64,000 nucleotides of DNA from Bacteroidota bacterium. Lineage in GTDB: Bacteria > Bacteroidota > Bacteroidia > Chitinophagales > Chitinophagaceae. Below the pieces are notes generated by a model that did no database searches, was not told the DNA's origin, and saw nothing but the letters and a program-made list of their open reading frames with translations. Positions within the stretch are counted from its first letter, which is position 1. Each line of letters opens with the position of its first letter. The position numbers and the translations under genes were made by a program. Location of the stretch: the NCBI GenBank assembly GCA_947460595.1, contig CANHGS010000014.1:1-64000 (forward strand), given 5' to 3'. Positions 35,739 through 46,301 of this stretch are shown here, piece by piece.

Positions 35739-35867
35739 GCTGCTGCGATAAAATTTAGTGCAATATAACCTGAAAATTTCTTTTACCCCTATATTTGCAC
35801 CCAATTAATAAGGAAAACGCTTTGTTTTACCCCCAGTTATCAAAGCTTTAAACCCTGATGGACAGTT

Positions 35868-35944
35868 CGGGACGTAGCGCAGCCCGGTAGCGCACACGTC
35901 TGGGGGGCGTGGGGTCGCAAGTTCAAATCTTGTCGTCCCGACCA
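35868..35944 (+). tRNA. tRNA-Pro (anticodon GGG), encoded CCA
   Basis: CGGGACGTAGCGCAGCCCGGTAGCGCACACGTCTGGGGGGCGTGGGGTCGCAAGTTCAAATCTTGTCGTCCCGACCA: cloverleaf, CTGGGGG anticodon loop, GTTCAAATC T-loop. Confidence 0.96.
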
Positions 35945-35966
35945 ATGAAACCGGAAACGGAAACCG

Positions 35967-35998
35967 CCGCCAGCTAAAGCTGGCGGTATTTTTTTGCG
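35967..35998 (+). terminator. Terminator downstream of tRNA-Pro
   Basis: CCGCCAGC-TAAA-GCTGGCGG then ATTTTTTT. Confidence 0.85.
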
Positions 35999-36043
35999 CA
36001 GACGTGTCCCGAATTCATTCGGGTAAACGGATGCGCAAAAAAA
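35989..36043. repeat. Inverted repeat with nested hairpin
   Basis: TTTTTTTGCGCA (35989-36000) and TGCGCAAAAAAA (36032-36043) around CCCGAATTCATTCGGG. Confidence 0.85.
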
Positions 36044-36072
36044 TACAAACCGCGCAGGGCGCGGTGCGGTTT

Positions 36073-36312
36073 TTTCTGATCTAGGTTTTATTGAGCTCCC
36101 CCCTAACAGCGATTCGCGAGCTCCGCGAGCAAATCTAAACATCTTAGGAACGGGCGGCGGTTTCTGATCTAGGTTACATTGAGCTCCCCCCTAACAGCGA
36201 TTCGCGAGCCCCGCGAGCAAATCTAAACATCTTAGGAACGGGCGGCGGTTTCTGATCTAGGTTTTATTGAGCTCCCCCCTAACAGCGATTCGCGAGCCCC
36301 GCGAGCAAATCT
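36073..36312. repeat. 88-bp tandem repeat, about 2.7 copies
   Basis: tttctgatctaggtt[tt/ac]attgagctcccccctaacagcgattcgcgag[c/t]ccgcgagcaaatctaaacatcttaggaacgggcggcgg at 36073-36160, 36161-36248, partial 36249-36312. Confidence 0.95.
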
Positions 36313-37134: not shown

Positions 37135-38019
37135 TTACCCTACCTCTATCTTATACCCAATCCCCCTCACCGCCACAATCTTCACCCTTTCATCCATCTC
37201 TAATTTCTTCCGCAACTTAGAAATAAACATATCCAAACTCCTCCCTACAATCACCCCCTCATCTTCCCAAATCTCTTTCTGAATCCTATTTCTTTCAATA
37301 ACCAGATTCGGGCTCTCCGCAAAAATCCTGAGCACCCTAGACTCTGTAGCAGTTAAGTCAACAGTTAGTTCCTTCATCACCAATTTCCTCAGTTTAGCAT
37401 CAAATAAAATTCCACCCAACTGAAACTGATCAACATCATGAATAACCTCATCCTCCTTCTTAGTCTTAGCCGTTCTAAAAAACAGTAAACCAATAAAAGC
37501 CAAAATAGGCAGACTACCCAGAAGGTATCCACTCTTAGCACTGATCCAAGCATCTTTAAATTGAATACTAATCACATAACAAGCTTTAGGAAGCCTTCTC
37601 CCTTTACAGGATACAATGGTTTCCTTTTCTTTATTGGAAATGGCATATCCATAAGCCACTTTCTGGGTTCCGCAGTTCAGTACATTTACCACATAATCGG
37701 GGACTCCAGCATCCTTACCCAATAAACCTAAAGTGGTGTTCACCAAAGAATCTGGTAAAAACCCAAACTCCCGCTCAAAACTCAACTGGAATTCATTGTC
37801 CGATATTATATTCACAGGCAGTACCCTAGAAACACTATCGCCAGATTGTAAGAGCAGTTCATGCCCAACTTTACGAATCAAAATTTCCCTTCTGGCTATT
37901 TCAAAATCGTCAGTAACCGTAAAGCTAAACGCCAAACAAATACCAGCAACCAATAGCAGGGAAACTGATCCAAACAGGTATTTATCATTACTAAAAAGCT
38001 TATTTTGACGCTGAGACAT
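37135..38019 (-). CDS. Membrane-anchored transcriptional regulator with C-terminal OmpR-type winged helix
   Basis: TM YLFGSVSLLLVAGICLAFSF, TM GYLLGSLPILAFIGLLFF, C-terminal LTVDLTATESRVLRIFAESPNLVIERNRIQKEIWEDEGVIVGRSLDMFISKLRKKL...VRGIGYKIEV. Confidence 0.88.
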   Translation of the reverse strand: MSQRQNKLFSNDKYLFGSVSLLLVAGICLAFSFTVTDDFEIARREILIRKVGHELLLQSGDSVSRVLPVNIISDNEFQLSFEREFGFLPDSLVNTTLGLLGKDAGVPDYVVNVLNCGTQKVAYGYAISNKEKETIVSCKGRRLPKACYVISIQFKDAWISAKSGYLLGSLPILAFIGLLFFRTAKTKKEDEVIHDVDQFQLGGILFDAKLRKLVMKELTVDLTATESRVLRIFAESPNLVIERNRIQKEIWEDEGVIVGRSLDMFISKLRKKLEMDERVKIVAVRGIGYKIEVG

Positions 38020-38134
38020 AGTTTTTACGCAATATTTACAAAGTTGACAGTTTTATTTACAATACAAATTCCCTTTGATGAAAGGTACCGAACTACTTTA
38101 GCCAAGTCAATTTTAAAAGGATAAAAATCTAACT

Positions 38135-39703
38135 ATGAATTACAAAAACCTACTTGCGCTAATCTTAATCCCCGTTTTGTATGTTTCCTGTAAAGAAAAG
38201 CAAAGCACTGTTACCCTGACTCTGGAAATCATCCAACCCGCTGTCAAAAACCTAGTCAGTGCCTACGGCCCAACCAGAATGGTACGCAGCGTAAAACAAG
38301 CAAAGAACGGAGACATTTTAATAGCTTCTTACACTGGCCTATGGCGATATGATGGAAAAATGTTCACCAATATCACCACCACCATTGCTGTTCCCAGCAT
38401 TTGGGATGTATTGGAAGACAAGAAGGGAAATCTTTGGATAGGCACCAAGGATTCAGGTCTCTATTATTATGATGGAAAATCCTTTCTGCATTATACCACC
38501 CGTCAGGGACTTCCCTCTAATATGGCGCTGCATTTATATGAAGACAGGGCTGGTAATATTTGGACAAATGCCGGAGGCGCCACCCGTTTTGACGGAAAAT
38601 CCTTTAAAACCTATACCACCAAAGACGGGCTTCCCGATAATGCTGTAAATACATTCATGGAAGATAAAGACGGTAAAATATGGATAGGCACTAGGGGAGA
38701 TGCTTGTTATTTTGATGGCAAAACCTTTATTATTTTAAAAAACAACGAAGGCAAACCATTTCACAATGTCTGGTCAATAGTAGAAGATCAAAAAGGTACT
38801 ATTTGGTTTGGTGCAGAAATCATCAAAGAAATTAAAAACAGTACCTATTATATGGATGGAGCTCCCGGCCTATGGCGATATGATGGGACTAACTATGCCA
38901 AAGTATCGGAAATGAGCGCATCTGCAATTATGCAAGACAAGCAAGGAAATATCTGGACTACCGGTGCTGAAAAAAATATTGGAATGAGCGCTTGGAAACT
39001 GTTGCGTTATGATCAAAGCACATTAAACAATGAAAAGCCTGCTGTAACTGAAATGGCATCCATAGATAAAATGCTTTGCAGAATTATTGAAGCTACAGAT
39101 GGCAGCATTTGGTTTGGATCCATCAACGGAGTTTACCGGTTTGATGGAAAAGACCTCACAAACTTTCAAGGAAAACAAGAACAGGTTTACAATATTGATC
39201 AAAAGGAAAGCCGAATTACCTGGAAGGGCTCTATGAAAATTTCTGCAGCAGAAAAGCATGTAGGTTATGTATCTATCTCAAAAGGAGAGCTTTGGGTAGA
39301 AAATAATCGCTTAGTTGGTGGAGCCGCTACCATAGACATGAACGCTATGGAATTTGCAGATAAGAATGATAAAAATAACCCCATTCAACACTTACAATCG
39401 GCTGACTATTTTGATGTAAAAAGATTCCCATTTGCTACTATTGAAATTTCACAAGTAGATTCCTTAACTGATAAAACAGTTCAAATTACCGGTTACTTAA
39501 CCATTAAAACAGTTTCACGATTGGTGAGTTTTCCAGCAACCATTGAAGTTAAAAGTGGAATATTGAACGCCAATGCTAAACTCACTATTGATAGAACCAA
39601 TTGGGGGATCAATTTTCAATCTGGAAAGTTTTATAAAAAAATGGCGGATCAAATTGTTTCTGATGAGATTGATTTTGAAATTAAAATAGTGGCAAAGAAA
39701 TAA
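38135..39703 (+). CDS. Lipoprotein: two-component-regulator propeller repeats fused to C-terminal YceI-like domain
   Basis: LYVSCKEK lipobox; repeated EDKKGNLWIGTKDSGLYYYDGKSF units; C-terminal SRITWKGSMKISAAEKHVGYVSISKGELWVEN...LTIDRTNWGINFQSGKFYKKMADQIVSDEIDFEIKIVAK. Confidence 0.82.
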   Translation: MNYKNLLALILIPVLYVSCKEKQSTVTLTLEIIQPAVKNLVSAYGPTRMVRSVKQAKNGDILIASYTGLWRYDGKMFTNITTTIAVPSIWDVLEDKKGNLWIGTKDSGLYYYDGKSFLHYTTRQGLPSNMALHLYEDRAGNIWTNAGGATRFDGKSFKTYTTKDGLPDNAVNTFMEDKDGKIWIGTRGDACYFDGKTFIILKNNEGKPFHNVWSIVEDQKGTIWFGAEIIKEIKNSTYYMDGAPGLWRYDGTNYAKVSEMSASAIMQDKQGNIWTTGAEKNIGMSAWKLLRYDQSTLNNEKPAVTEMASIDKMLCRIIEATDGSIWFGSINGVYRFDGKDLTNFQGKQEQVYNIDQKESRITWKGSMKISAAEKHVGYVSISKGELWVENNRLVGGAATIDMNAMEFADKNDKNNPIQHLQSADYFDVKRFPFATIEISQVDSLTDKTVQITGYLTIKTVSRLVSFPATIEVKSGILNANAKLTIDRTNWGINFQSGKFYKKMADQIVSDEIDFEIKIVAKK

Positions 39704-41594: not shown

Positions 41595-44500
41595 ATGAAA
41601 AAAACAGCCAAAACAAGCTCACAGCTTCTATTAGCCGCCGCACTGTTGACCCTATCGGCGCAGGCCCAACATCAAAACCGTGATTATCCCATACAGCCCG
41701 TGACTTTTAACCATGTTCATGTAAATGATCAATTCTGGGCGCCACGCATAGATATTAATGCAGACATTACCATTCCTTATGTATTGCAGAAATGCCGCGA
41801 ACAGGGACGCATTGACAATTTCTTAAAAGCTGCCGGCAAAAAGGATCCAACCAATATTACTGAATACCCTTTTGACGATACTGATATCTATAAGCTTATT
41901 GAAGGTGCTTCCTATTCCTTACAAGTAAAACCTAATCCTTCACTGGAGCGCAGCATTGATACCCTCATAGGCATCATTGCCGACGCCCAAGAACCAGATG
42001 GGTATCTATATACGTTTAGAACCATGAAACCCCAGAAGCTACATCCTTGGGTAGGAGCTAAGCGTTGGGAAAAAGATCCTGACCTAAGCCACGAATTATA
42101 CAATAGCGGACATTTATACGAAGCCGCAACGGCACACTATATTTCTACTGGTAAGAAATCCTTATTGAATATTGCCATCAAGAATGCGGATTTGCTTGTC
42201 AAAGATTTTGGCCCAGGCAAAGCCGATTATTTTCCTGGTCACCAAGTAGTAGAAATGGGGCTGGCGCGATTGTATAGAGTAACAGGCAAACAAGCCTACC
42301 TAGATTTAGCCAAATTCTTTTTAGATACTAGGGGCAAGGGTGCAGGGAAATATTCAGAATACAACCAATCACAAAAGCCCGTAACTCAGCAACACGAAGC
42401 CGTTGGACACGCAGTACGTGCAGCCTATATGTATACAGGCATGGCCGATGTGGCAGCCTTAACAGGCGATGCTTCTTATATAAAAGCCATTGACGATATC
42501 TGGACAGATGTAGTGAGTAAGAAAATGTACCTAACTGGAGGTATTGGCGCTACCGGTGCTGGTGAAGCATTTGGCGCGGCTTATCACTTACCCAATATGA
42601 GTGCTTATGCAGAAACCTGTGCATCCATTGCCAACGTGTACTGGAATAACCGTATGTTTTTATTGCATGGCGATGCTAGTTATATAGACGTGATGGAGCG
42701 GGTCATGTACAATGGATTATTATCTGGTGTTTCTCAAAACGGCACCAAATTTTTTTATCCCAATCCGCTAGCTTCCATGGGGCAGCACCAACGCAGTGCT
42801 TGGTTTGGCTGTGCTTGTTGCATTTCTAATATGACCAGGTTTATGCCATCGATTCCAGGTTATGTATATGCCCAAAATGCCAATAACCTCTATGTCAATC
42901 TCTTTATGTCTAACCAGTCAGACATCAAACTGCCTGCAGGTAAACTGAGTATTGCCCAAGAAACGGCTTATCCTTGGAAGGGTAAAGTGACCTTAAAAAT
43001 TGATCCTGCAAAATCAATGGATTTTGTATTGCGTGTGCGTATTCCGGGTTGGGCCAGACAGGAAGCAGTGCCCAGTAATTTGTATCGCTTTGCGGATACC
43101 AAATTGGTAACTATTCCCATTAGCATCAATGGCAAAACCCAAGAATACATTGTTGAAAAAGGCTACGCTGTTTTTAGCCGCACTTGGAAAAAAGGTGATC
43201 TAGTAGAAATAGATCTTCCCATGGAAGTAGAAAAAGTATTGGCCAATGAAAATGTAAAAGAAGATAAGGGCAGATTTGCTTTTCAAAAAGGGCCACTGGT
43301 CTATTGCTTAGAAGGACCAGATAACCAAGGTGGTACGGTGCAGAATATTGTGATGAGTAAAGACGCTTCCATCTCTGAAAACTATGAGCAACAATTACTC
43401 AATGGTGTCTTGGTATTAAGTGGGCAAGGGGTTGCTACCAAAAGACAGGTAGCTAGTACAGAATTGCAAACAACACCTCTACAAGCCAAAGCCATTCCTT
43501 ACTATGCATGGAATAATAGGGAAGCTTCTGAAATGCAGGTCTGGATTCCTTTTGAAACATCCGCTGCAAGACCTAGCCCAGCTGCTACCATTGCTTCTAA
43601 AAGTGTAGTTTCCGCTTCTATTAACAACAAAAGAATGTTGTCTGCTTTGAATGACCAATTTGAACCGGCTTCTTCTGAAGATAAATCTGGTTTGTATATG
43701 CATTGGTGGCCCAAGAAAGACACCAAGGAATGGATTCAATATGATTTTGACAAAGCTTATACCGTGTCTGAATCCAAAGTCTATTGGTATGACGATGCGC
43801 CTTTTGGTGGTTGCAGAATTCCAGCAAACTACACCATCTTATATAAGCAGGGGGATGCTTGGGTTCCTGTTAAAAATTTGACACCCTATACACCAGTAAA
43901 AGATACATACGATGTGCTGAAATTTGAACCTGTTAGTACCACAGCTATTCGTATGGAAATTCAACTACCCAAAGATCATGCAACAGGTGTACACGAGTGG
44001 ATTATTCAAAATCCGCGACCTGAAAGAAAGCAGGAAGAATTACCAAAGTTTGCAGAGAACTATCCCCAATTATACAATGCCTTTTTAACCAGTGTGGCTG
44101 ATGTTAAACTGAGTACAAATCTTGGTGTTTTACCAACCCTTCCTAGTTATTTGAATGGAACTTATTCGGGGATTCAACAAGGCCCTCCAGTAAGGGTTAT
44201 TTGGCCTGCACCTAGTGATAATTCATCTGTACTTAAACCCGGAACTTATTCCATTGAAGGTCGCGTTCCCGGTACCACATTAAAACCAAAAGCCATTGTT
44301 ACGGTTAAAGCAAGTTTTGATCAGATAGCATCGCCGAAGGCAAAATTGGTAACTTTTAATTTGAACCAGGTTTCTTTAAATACCAATACACTTGGTCAAC
44401 AAACAAAATTTACGGAGAACAGGGATAAGTTTGTTCAAACCTTAGCCAAGACTGACCCCAATGCTTTTTTATACATGTTTCGTCATGCTTTTGGCCAGCC

Positions 44501-46301
44501 ACAACCTTCTGGTACCAAGGCTTTAGGCGTTTGGGATAGCAAGGATACCAAATTAAGAGGTCATGCAACGGGTCATTATCTATCTGCATTAGCTCAAGCT
44601 TATGCTGGCACAGGATATGACAAAAACCTTCAGCAGATATTTGCTCAAAAAATGGATTACATGGTTAATGCCTTGTATGATTTGGCGCAATTATCAGGCA
44701 AATCAAAAGAAGCAGACGGCCCCTTTGTAGCCGATGCTAGATGGGTACCCATGGGTCCTGGTAAGAAAAGCTATGACTCTGATATTAGCGATACAGGTAT
44801 TAGAAACGATTATTGGAATTGGGGCAAGGGCTTTATCAGCGCCTATCCGCCAGACCAATTTATTATGTTAGAAGCGGGTGCTAAATATGGTACCCAACCC
44901 ACTCAAATCTGGGCGCCTTATTATACCCTACACAAAATCTTGGCTGGCTTAATTGACATCTATGAAGTGAGAGGCAACAAAAAAGCTTTGGATATTGCCA
45001 CAGGGATGAGCAATTGGGTCTATGCCCGTTTGAGTCAAGTGCCCACCAATACTAGGATCAGCATGTGGAATACTTATATAGCCGGAGAATTTGGAGGCAT
45101 GAATGAAGTAATGGCGCATTTATACCGCATTACCAAAGAGCCTAATTATCTAAAAACCGCACAATTGTTTGACAATATTAAAGTATTCTTTGGCGATACC
45201 ACACATAACAGTGGGCTAGCCAAAAATGTTGACTTGTTTAGGGGTTTACACGCCAACCAACATATTCCTCAAATGGTGGGTAGTATGGAAACCTATCGCG
45301 TTTCTATTAATCCTGAATATTACCAAGTGGCTAATAATTTTTGGCACAAAGCTGTTTACGATTATTCCTATAGCATTGGGGGAGTAGCTGGTGCTAGTAA
45401 TCCCAATAACCCAGAATGTTTTACCAGTGAGCCTGGTACCCTCTATGCAAATGGTCTTTCTGCGGGTGGACAAAATGAAACATGCGCCACTTATAATATG
45501 CTCAAATTAACAAGTGATATATTTCAGTATGACCAGCGAGGTGAACTGATGGATTATTATGAACGCGCTTTATACAATGATATCCTGGCTTCTGTTGCAG
45601 AACATAGTCCTGCTAACACATACCATATTCCGCTCAGACCTGGATCTGAAAAAGATTTTGGCAACCCCAATATGGATGGTTTTACCTGCTGCAATGGAAC
45701 TGCCATGGAGAGCAATACCAAGTTTCAAAATAGCATTTATTTTAAATCTATTGATGGCAAAGCCTTGTACGTGAATCTCTTTATTCCATCTACTTTAAAT
45801 TGGAGTAATAAGAAGGTAACCGTTGAACAGAAAACTAATTTTCCAATAGAAGACAATACCCAACTCTTGATTAAGGGTAGTGGTAGTTTTAATCTATTGG
45901 TTCGCGTACCGGGATGGGCTACCAAGGGATTCATGATAACCATTAATGGCATAGCTCAGGCATTAGAAGCAATTCCTGGAACCTATCTGACAATTGGTCG
46001 TAAATGGAAAGACGGTGACATCATTGAACTAAAAATGCCATTTCAATTTCATTTAGAACCTTTGATGGATCAGCAAAATATTGCCAGTCTATTTTATGGC
46101 CCCATTTTGTTGGCAGCTCAAGAAACAGAGGCTAGAAAGGATTTTCGCAAAATTACGCTCAACGCCAATGACTTGGGTAAGACCATTAAAGGAGATGCCC
46201 AACAATTGCAGTTTAGTATTGACAACGTTCCATTCAAACCTTTTTACGATACTTTTGGGAGGCATTCGGTGTATCTAGACGTTGCCTTAACAAAGGAATA
46301 A
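41595..46301 (+). CDS. Secreted multimodular glycoside hydrolase with two GH127-type (DUF1680/beta-L-arabinofuranosidase-like) modules
   Basis: Module 1 PVTFNHVHVNDQFWAPRIDIN...AETCASIANVYW...WFGCACCISNMTRF; module 2 TFNLNQVSLNTNTLGQQ...NETCATYNMLKLT...GFTCCNGTAMES; intervening discoidin-like and Ig-like segments. Confidence 0.88.
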   Translation: MKKTAKTSSQLLLAAALLTLSAQAQHQNRDYPIQPVTFNHVHVNDQFWAPRIDINADITIPYVLQKCREQGRIDNFLKAAGKKDPTNITEYPFDDTDIYKLIEGASYSLQVKPNPSLERSIDTLIGIIADAQEPDGYLYTFRTMKPQKLHPWVGAKRWEKDPDLSHELYNSGHLYEAATAHYISTGKKSLLNIAIKNADLLVKDFGPGKADYFPGHQVVEMGLARLYRVTGKQAYLDLAKFFLDTRGKGAGKYSEYNQSQKPVTQQHEAVGHAVRAAYMYTGMADVAALTGDASYIKAIDDIWTDVVSKKMYLTGGIGATGAGEAFGAAYHLPNMSAYAETCASIANVYWNNRMFLLHGDASYIDVMERVMYNGLLSGVSQNGTKFFYPNPLASMGQHQRSAWFGCACCISNMTRFMPSIPGYVYAQNANNLYVNLFMSNQSDIKLPAGKLSIAQETAYPWKGKVTLKIDPAKSMDFVLRVRIPGWARQEAVPSNLYRFADTKLVTIPISINGKTQEYIVEKGYAVFSRTWKKGDLVEIDLPMEVEKVLANENVKEDKGRFAFQKGPLVYCLEGPDNQGGTVQNIVMSKDASISENYEQQLLNGVLVLSGQGVATKRQVASTELQTTPLQAKAIPYYAWNNREASEMQVWIPFETSAARPSPAATIASKSVVSASINNKRMLSALNDQFEPASSEDKSGLYMHWWPKKDTKEWIQYDFDKAYTVSESKVYWYDDAPFGGCRIPANYTILYKQGDAWVPVKNLTPYTPVKDTYDVLKFEPVSTTAIRMEIQLPKDHATGVHEWIIQNPRPERKQEELPKFAENYPQLYNAFLTSVADVKLSTNLGVLPTLPSYLNGTYSGIQQGPPVRVIWPAPSDNSSVLKPGTYSIEGRVPGTTLKPKAIVTVKASFDQIASPKAKLVTFNLNQVSLNTNTLGQQTKFTENRDKFVQTLAKTDPNAFLYMFRHAFGQPQPSGTKALGVWDSKDTKLRGHATGHYLSALAQAYAGTGYDKNLQQIFAQKMDYMVNALYDLAQLSGKSKEADGPFVADARWVPMGPGKKSYDSDISDTGIRNDYWNWGKGFISAYPPDQFIMLEAGAKYGTQPTQIWAPYYTLHKILAGLIDIYEVRGNKKALDIATGMSNWVYARLSQVPTNTRISMWNTYIAGEFGGMNEVMAHLYRITKEPNYLKTAQLFDNIKVFFGDTTHNSGLAKNVDLFRGLHANQHIPQMVGSMETYRVSINPEYYQVANNFWHKAVYDYSYSIGGVAGASNPNNPECFTSEPGTLYANGLSAGGQNETCATYNMLKLTSDIFQYDQRGELMDYYERALYNDILASVAEHSPANTYHIPLRPGSEKDFGNPNMDGFTCCNGTAMESNTKFQNSIYFKSIDGKALYVNLFIPSTLNWSNKKVTVEQKTNFPIEDNTQLLIKGSGSFNLLVRVPGWATKGFMITINGIAQALEAIPGTYLTIGRKWKDGDIIELKMPFQFHLEPLMDQQNIASLFYGPILLAAQETEARKDFRKITLNANDLGKTIKGDAQQLQFSIDNVPFKPFYDTFGRHSVYLDVALTKE

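What the first reader, a model, noticed from the sequence alone, without database searches (positions are those of the whole stretch)
37135..38019. Two-TM regulator with C-terminal winged helix, divergent from the propeller-YceI gene
The layout is TM, about 115-aa extracytoplasmic domain, TM, cytoplasmic OmpR-type winged helix. It resembles ToxR/CadC one-component signalling but with the DNA-binding domain at the C-terminus. It is divergently transcribed from the sensor-like lipoprotein across a 115-bp spacer. A sensor lipoprotein / membrane transcription factor pair without kinase or sigma factor is a plausible uncharacterised signalling unit.
Basis: partly seen in the sequence, partly recalled or inferred. 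Interest (0 to 1): 0.65.

Follow-up and report, generated by a model that had tools for sequence, protein, structure and literature searches.

The report
Membrane gene switch with exchangeable targets
This gene encodes a membrane-spanning gene switch, apparently built by fusing the sensor of one two-component signalling system to its DNA-binding part, and across many soil and water bacteria it sits beside an almost unique 30-base DNA site that marks it and a small set of interchangeable secreted proteins, many of which end in a single cysteine.

Summary
The 294-aa gene at 37135-38019 has two membrane segments around a ~130-aa extracytoplasmic domain and a C-terminal OmpR/PhoB-type winged helix, and lies 115 bp from a divergent Reg_prop-YceI lipoprotein gene. 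It is a real family. Across Bacteroidia, 83 of 85 close relatives carry the same 30-bp triple-repeat site (here 38034-38063), typically 14-16 bp from the regulator start, and a Bacteroidetes-type -7 box follows at fixed spacing. The site is nearly unique per genome. Of 18 copies with no regulator beside them, 17 precede the same gene families found next to regulators, so this is a small regulon. Unrelated families replace each other next to near-identical regulators, so the lipoprotein is best read as the controlled output, not a dedicated sensor. The sensor domain is homologous to that of RprX-like histidine kinases, and the DNA-binding domain is nearest RprY, so the protein looks like a two-component system collapsed into one chain. 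Unexpectedly, at least six unrelated target families include members ending in a C-terminal cysteine (53/90 partners versus 1/405 flanking ORFs), while the sensor keeps one invariant, probably unpaired cysteine. DNA binding, direction of control and signal are inferred. No published description was found in the papers searched.

The parts
37135..38019 (-). Membrane one-component regulator CDS (294 aa, P0001)
37921..37983 (-). First membrane segment, about residues 13-33
   Evidence: hydropathy; AF2 helix 12-31
37534..37914 (-). Extracytoplasmic sensor domain, about residues 36-162. R49, D61, C138 and R141 are invariant in 104/104; C116 and C147 are kept or lost together
   Evidence: homologous to RprX-like kinase sensor domain
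37468..37533 (-). Second membrane segment, about residues 163-184
37150..37365 (-). Cytoplasmic OmpR/PhoB-type winged helix (PF00486)
   Evidence: nearest NCBIfam model RprY, below its cut-off
38034..38063 (+). 30-bp operator ATTTACAAAGTTGACAGTTTTATTTACAAT, three direct TTTACA-like repeats; 2 mismatches to family consensus; the only copy in this genome
38094..38101 (+). TACTTTAG, a TAnnTTnG-type -7 box of the divergent promoter, 60 nt from operator start as in 81 of 104 sites
38135..39703 (+). Divergent target: probable lipoprotein, Reg_prop beta-propeller fused to YceI domain (522 aa, P0002)
   Evidence: fusions of the same architecture behind orphan operators in L158, L199, L203, L205

Best explanation
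The gene encodes a single-chain, membrane-bound transcription factor. SHOWN by sequence: sensor domain outside, a membrane crossing into a cytoplasmic OmpR/PhoB-type winged helix, no kinase and no receiver domain; a conserved 30-bp triple-repeat site between it and the divergent gene; the same site, nearly genome-unique, in front of the same small set of secreted protein families elsewhere. INFERRED: the sensor domain reads a condition or molecule outside the inner membrane. The signal changes dimerisation or orientation of the winged helices, which bind head-to-tail to the three repeats at about -41 to -71 and activate the target promoter, while the same site, 14-16 bp upstream of the regulator's own start codon, lets it control itself. 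The divergent Reg_prop-YceI lipoprotein is the output. The regulator arose by collapse of an RprX/RprY-like two-component system: kinase sensor domain joined directly to the DNA-binding domain.
For: Family: 80 full-length relatives. Operator in 83 of 85 close relatives within 3 mismatches; distant relatives keep two or three TTTACA repeats 10-11 bp apart, the usual spacing for OmpR/PhoB-type proteins. Operator found in 8 of 396 surveyed genomes: all 7 with a close regulator and one with a distant one; none matched the reversed-pattern control. 48 of 50 genomes behind the relatives have 1-3 copies; the two apparent misses carry a one-base insertion. 17 of 18 orphan copies precede the same families: ~180-aa protein ending in Cys x10, Reg_prop-YceI fusion x4, Reg_prop x2, WD40-like propeller x1. 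-7 box at fixed spacing in 96 of 104 sites. Where the regulator lacks a divergent partner (L093, L095), its operator is still kept. Sensor homology to RprX-like kinases: hhalign 96.7%, E 3.6e-10; those kinases carry HisKA and HATPase_c and adjoin RprY-like regulators. Partner class changes at least 34 times on the regulator tree (shuffled mean 50).
Against: No binding or expression data. Direction of control is read only from site position. The signal is unknown and the sensor fold matches nothing solved. Two records of one genome (L097 and L122) have a regulator without the adjacent site. One orphan site (L196, 3 mismatches) precedes no family member. The collapse direction (two-component to one-component) is inferred, not rooted.
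Confidence: 0.78

Rival explanations
1. Co-component signalling: the divergent lipoprotein is a true co-sensor that binds the regulator's extracytoplasmic domain, like ToxS with ToxR.
For: Conserved divergent pairing; C-terminal cysteines in several partner families and one invariant, probably free cysteine in the sensor would allow a shared contact.
Against: Unrelated folds occupy the partner position next to near-identical regulators; partners also occur far from the regulator; the window's own partner lacks a C-terminal cysteine.
Confidence: 0.15
2. Repressor rather than activator: the regulator holds the target off and is released by signal.
For: A repressor role has been proposed for RprY in P. 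gingivalis (PMC3646045).
Against: The repeats end about 30 bp upstream of the -7 box, the usual place for an OmpR/PhoB-type activator.
Confidence: 0.2
3. A degenerate response regulator that lost its receiver domain and gained hydrophobic segments by chance; a decaying gene.
For: Winged helix is RprY-like.
Against: Full-length conservation across orders, residues invariant in 104/104 sequences of the sensor, operator conservation.
Confidence: 0.02

Closest known systems
SusR and SusR-like regulators of Bacteroides (PMC3878776)
   Same: Membrane protein with periplasmic sensor and cytoplasmic DNA-binding domain near the C-terminus; predicted direct-repeat sites; Bacteroidota
   Different: The SusR DNA-binding domain is described as unlike other factors, its predicted sites are 67 or 77 bp apart and its targets are starch/dextran genes; here an OmpR-type winged helix, three repeats 9-12 bp apart, and small secreted proteins
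ToxR/CadC membrane one-component regulators
   Same: OmpR-type winged helix tethered to the membrane and an extracytoplasmic input domain; Foldseek matches to ToxR and CadC winged helices
   Different: ToxR/CadC carry the winged helix at the N-terminus (established knowledge); here it is C-terminal, after the second membrane segment
RprX/RprY two-component system
   Same: Sensor domain homologous to RprX-like kinases; winged helix scores best with RprY
   Different: No HisKA, HATPase or receiver domain; C138, C147 and R141 of the sensor have no counterpart in the kinase alignment
Transmembrane transcription regulators as surveyed in PMC10269533
   Same: DNA-binding domain plus transmembrane segment; survey reports enrichment in Bacteroidota
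   Different: The passages read do not describe this family, its operator or its targets; the survey's supplementary files were not examined

Membership tests
Transmembrane transcription regulator (TTR) | DNA-binding domain and at least one transmembrane segment in one chain | tested here: met
ToxR/CadC-like | N-terminal cytoplasmic winged helix followed by one TM and a C-terminal periplasmic domain | tested here: not met
   winged helix is C-terminal, residues 219-290
OmpR/PhoB response regulator | N-terminal receiver domain | tested here: not met
   only PF00486 found
OmpR/PhoB-type DNA-binding domain | PF00486 above the curated cut-off | tested here: met
   62.4 bits against 26.2
RprX/RprY two-component system | HisKA and HATPase_c kinase core with a separate RprY regulator | tested here: not met
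   RprY model 67 bits against cut-off 370
RprX-like sensor domain | Homologous extracytoplasmic domain | tested here: met
   hhalign 96.7%, E 3.6e-10 over 114 columns
SusR-like | SusR sensor and SusR-type C-terminal DNA-binding domain | tested here: inconclusive
   PF00486 present here whereas the SusR domain is described as unlike other factors; no direct sequence comparison made
Any of the above | Binding of the regulator to the operator | not testable with these tools
   needs EMSA, DNase footprint or ChIP-seq

The most novel reading that the evidence does not exclude
The C-terminal cysteine that appears in members of at least six unrelated target families is a shared tag read by the sensor domain. 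The invariant, probably unpaired C138 would form a mixed disulfide with the tail cysteine and an invariant arginine (R49 or R141) would hold the terminal carboxylate, so the regulator senses the redox state or amount of its own secreted products as feedback. A thiol-tail feedback loop of this kind would be a new way for a membrane transcription factor to be controlled. Against it: C138 is also invariant where partners lack the tail, including the window.
Probability: 0.2. Interest if true: 0.82.

Novelty: new variant of a known kind. Interest (0 to 1): 0.6.

Why it matters
It gives a widespread, apparently undescribed signalling family of environmental Bacteroidota a testable operator, promoter layout and target list. 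It offers a clear case of a two-component system reduced to one membrane protein. It also shows the same promoter serving different secreted proteins, with C-terminal cysteines arising repeatedly in unrelated families, which demands an explanation and can be tested with single point mutants.

Tried and rejected
PDB sequence search with the sensor profile and Foldseek of the sensor model (best E 0.02, TM below 0.45): no meaningful match. Foldseek of the full model found only winged helices. Plasmids: no full-length relative, so no plasmid link. Pfam/NCBIfam on the ~180-aa family ending in Cys: nothing. Own genome searched for that family: absent. Eight paper searches found no description of this regulator or its operator; the held library covers open-licence papers only. 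Decaying response regulator rejected because of conservation. Lipoprotein as dedicated co-sensor downgraded because of partner exchange and orphan operators. One fetched region (L253) was irrelevant.

Full report
WHAT IS THERE. Window 37135-38019 (minus strand) is a 294-aa ORF. Two hydrophobic segments (residues 13-37 and 163-184) flank an extracytoplasmic domain of about 130 aa, followed by a C-terminal PF00486 winged helix at 219-290. There is no receiver and no kinase domain. AlphaFold2 on a 104-sequence alignment gives pLDDT 79 for the whole protein and 85, pTM 0.80, for the sensor alone. The divergent gene at 38135-39703 encodes a probable lipoprotein with five Reg_prop stretches and a YceI domain.

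A REAL FAMILY. In a survey of 396 genomes about 25 had a match extending over the sensor, all in the window's class (my count from the table). Within the window's genus it is patchy: one of 36 relatives, plus G209. That suggests horizontal transfer or frequent loss. It was not found full length on plasmids.

THE OPERATOR. The spacer holds ATTTACAAAGTTTACATTTTTATTTACAAT (window: ATTTACAAAGTTGACAGTTTTATTTACAAT, 38034-38063), three direct TTTACA-like repeats, within 3 mismatches in 83 of 85 close relatives and typically 14-16 bp from the regulator's start codon (counts are mine from the table). Distant relatives keep two or three TTTACA repeats 10-11 bp apart (for example L009, L123, L124, L127, L129, L130). 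Expected chance matches are about 5e-5 per 5-Mb genome. The window's genome has exactly one. In the 396-genome survey 8 genomes have it: the 7 with a close regulator and one (G317) with a distant one. In the 50 genomes behind the relatives 48 have 1-3 copies and the reversed pattern has none. The two misses, L047 and L066, carry a one-base insertion. A TAnnTTnG box stands 59-60 nt from the operator start in 96 of 104 sites; from general knowledge this resembles the -7 element of Bacteroidetes promoters. It places the repeats at about -41 to -71, where OmpR/PhoB-type activators normally bind. That is an inference about direction, not a test.

THE REGULON. Eighteen operator copies had no regulator beside them. 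Seventeen precede members of the families seen next to regulators: the ~180-aa secreted protein ending in Cys (10: L157, L159, L160, L194, L195, L197, L202, L206, L207, L209), Reg_prop-YceI fusions of the window's own architecture (4: L158, L199, L203, L205), Reg_prop (2: L193, a remnant, and L200) and a WD40-like propeller (1: L208). One (L196, 3 mismatches) precedes nothing related. Some regulators without a divergent partner (L093, L095) keep their own operator, and in those genomes the targets lie elsewhere. The ~180-aa family occurs in 8 of 396 genomes, 7 of which have a sensor-type regulator (Fisher p 1e-8, which ignores shared ancestry).

OUTPUT, NOT SENSOR. On the regulator tree the class of the divergent gene changes at least 34 times among 86 labelled rows (shuffled labels: mean 50, minimum 43), often between well-supported sisters such as L094 and L100. 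In some cases promoter and signal peptide are shared while the protein body differs: L055 (YceI) and L113 (Reg_prop) are 94% identical in the spacer, 85% over the first 84 coding bases and 47% beyond. An unchanged sensor domain cannot easily have specific contacts with YceI, Reg_prop, BNR and unrelated folds alike. The targets, including the window's lipoprotein, are therefore best read as output. Fused and separate Reg_prop and YceI genes in these loci suggest that those two act together.

ORIGIN. A class-wide search with the sensor profile found, besides the one-component family, weaker matches in ORFs of about 410-440 aa. Three were read in full and are followed by RprY-like response regulators; the two scanned against Pfam carry HisKA and HATPase_c, so they are histidine kinases. 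Profile comparison of the two sensor domains gives 96.7% probability, E 3.6e-10, collinear over 114 columns. The winged helix also scores best with RprY. The simplest reading is a two-component system whose sensor domain was joined directly to the DNA-binding domain. Direction is not proven. In P. gingivalis RprY is linked to sodium and oxidative stress (PMC3646045); whether any of that carries over is unknown.

THE CYSTEINES. C138, R141, R49 and D61 are invariant in 104 sequences. C116 and C147 are always kept or lost together (90 both, 14 neither; about 10 changes each on the tree), so they probably form a disulfide and leave C138 unpaired. Only four of the independent contrasts lie on well-supported branches, so the formal test is weak. 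Among partners, 53 of 90 end in Cys against 1 of 405 other flanking ORFs: the ~180-aa family 30/30, BNR propellers 15/15, the CL5 family 4/4, TonB_C-like proteins 2/3 (the third is a split ORF whose second half ends in GC), one YceI and one Reg_prop. A further unnamed family ending in GC lies near distant regulators in L221 and L225. Relatedness inflates the raw p-value; the real weight is the repeated appearance in unrelated families. Whether the tail contacts C138 is untested, and the window's own partner lacks it.

VERDICT. The pairing is a conserved regulatory unit, but the lipoprotein is most likely the controlled gene rather than the sensor. The family is a new variant of the membrane one-component regulator, with inverted domain order relative to ToxR/CadC and a probable two-component origin.

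Noticed in passing
window 41595-46301: 1568-aa ORF with two GH127 beta-L-arabinofuranosidase catalytic stretches and an F5/8 type C-like domain between them
   Followed up: partly
window 35840-36142 and 35868-35944: tRNA-Pro (ggg) overlapped by a probably spurious 100-aa ORF on the other strand
   Followed up: no
L221 2597-3061, L225 2662-3090: Unnamed 142-155-aa secreted family ending in GC near distant regulators; no Pfam match for the one scanned
   Followed up: partly
L227, L228, L230, L231 regulator N-termini: Lipobox-like N-termini (for example ..FTLGCSS in L230), suggesting that some relatives may be lipid-anchored transcription factors with one membrane crossing
   Followed up: no
L205 3050 and 12373; L201 3016: One Pedobacter contig carries the regulator and a separate Reg_prop-YceI operon 9 kb apart; the L062 genome has a second complete regulator-target pair
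   Followed up: partly
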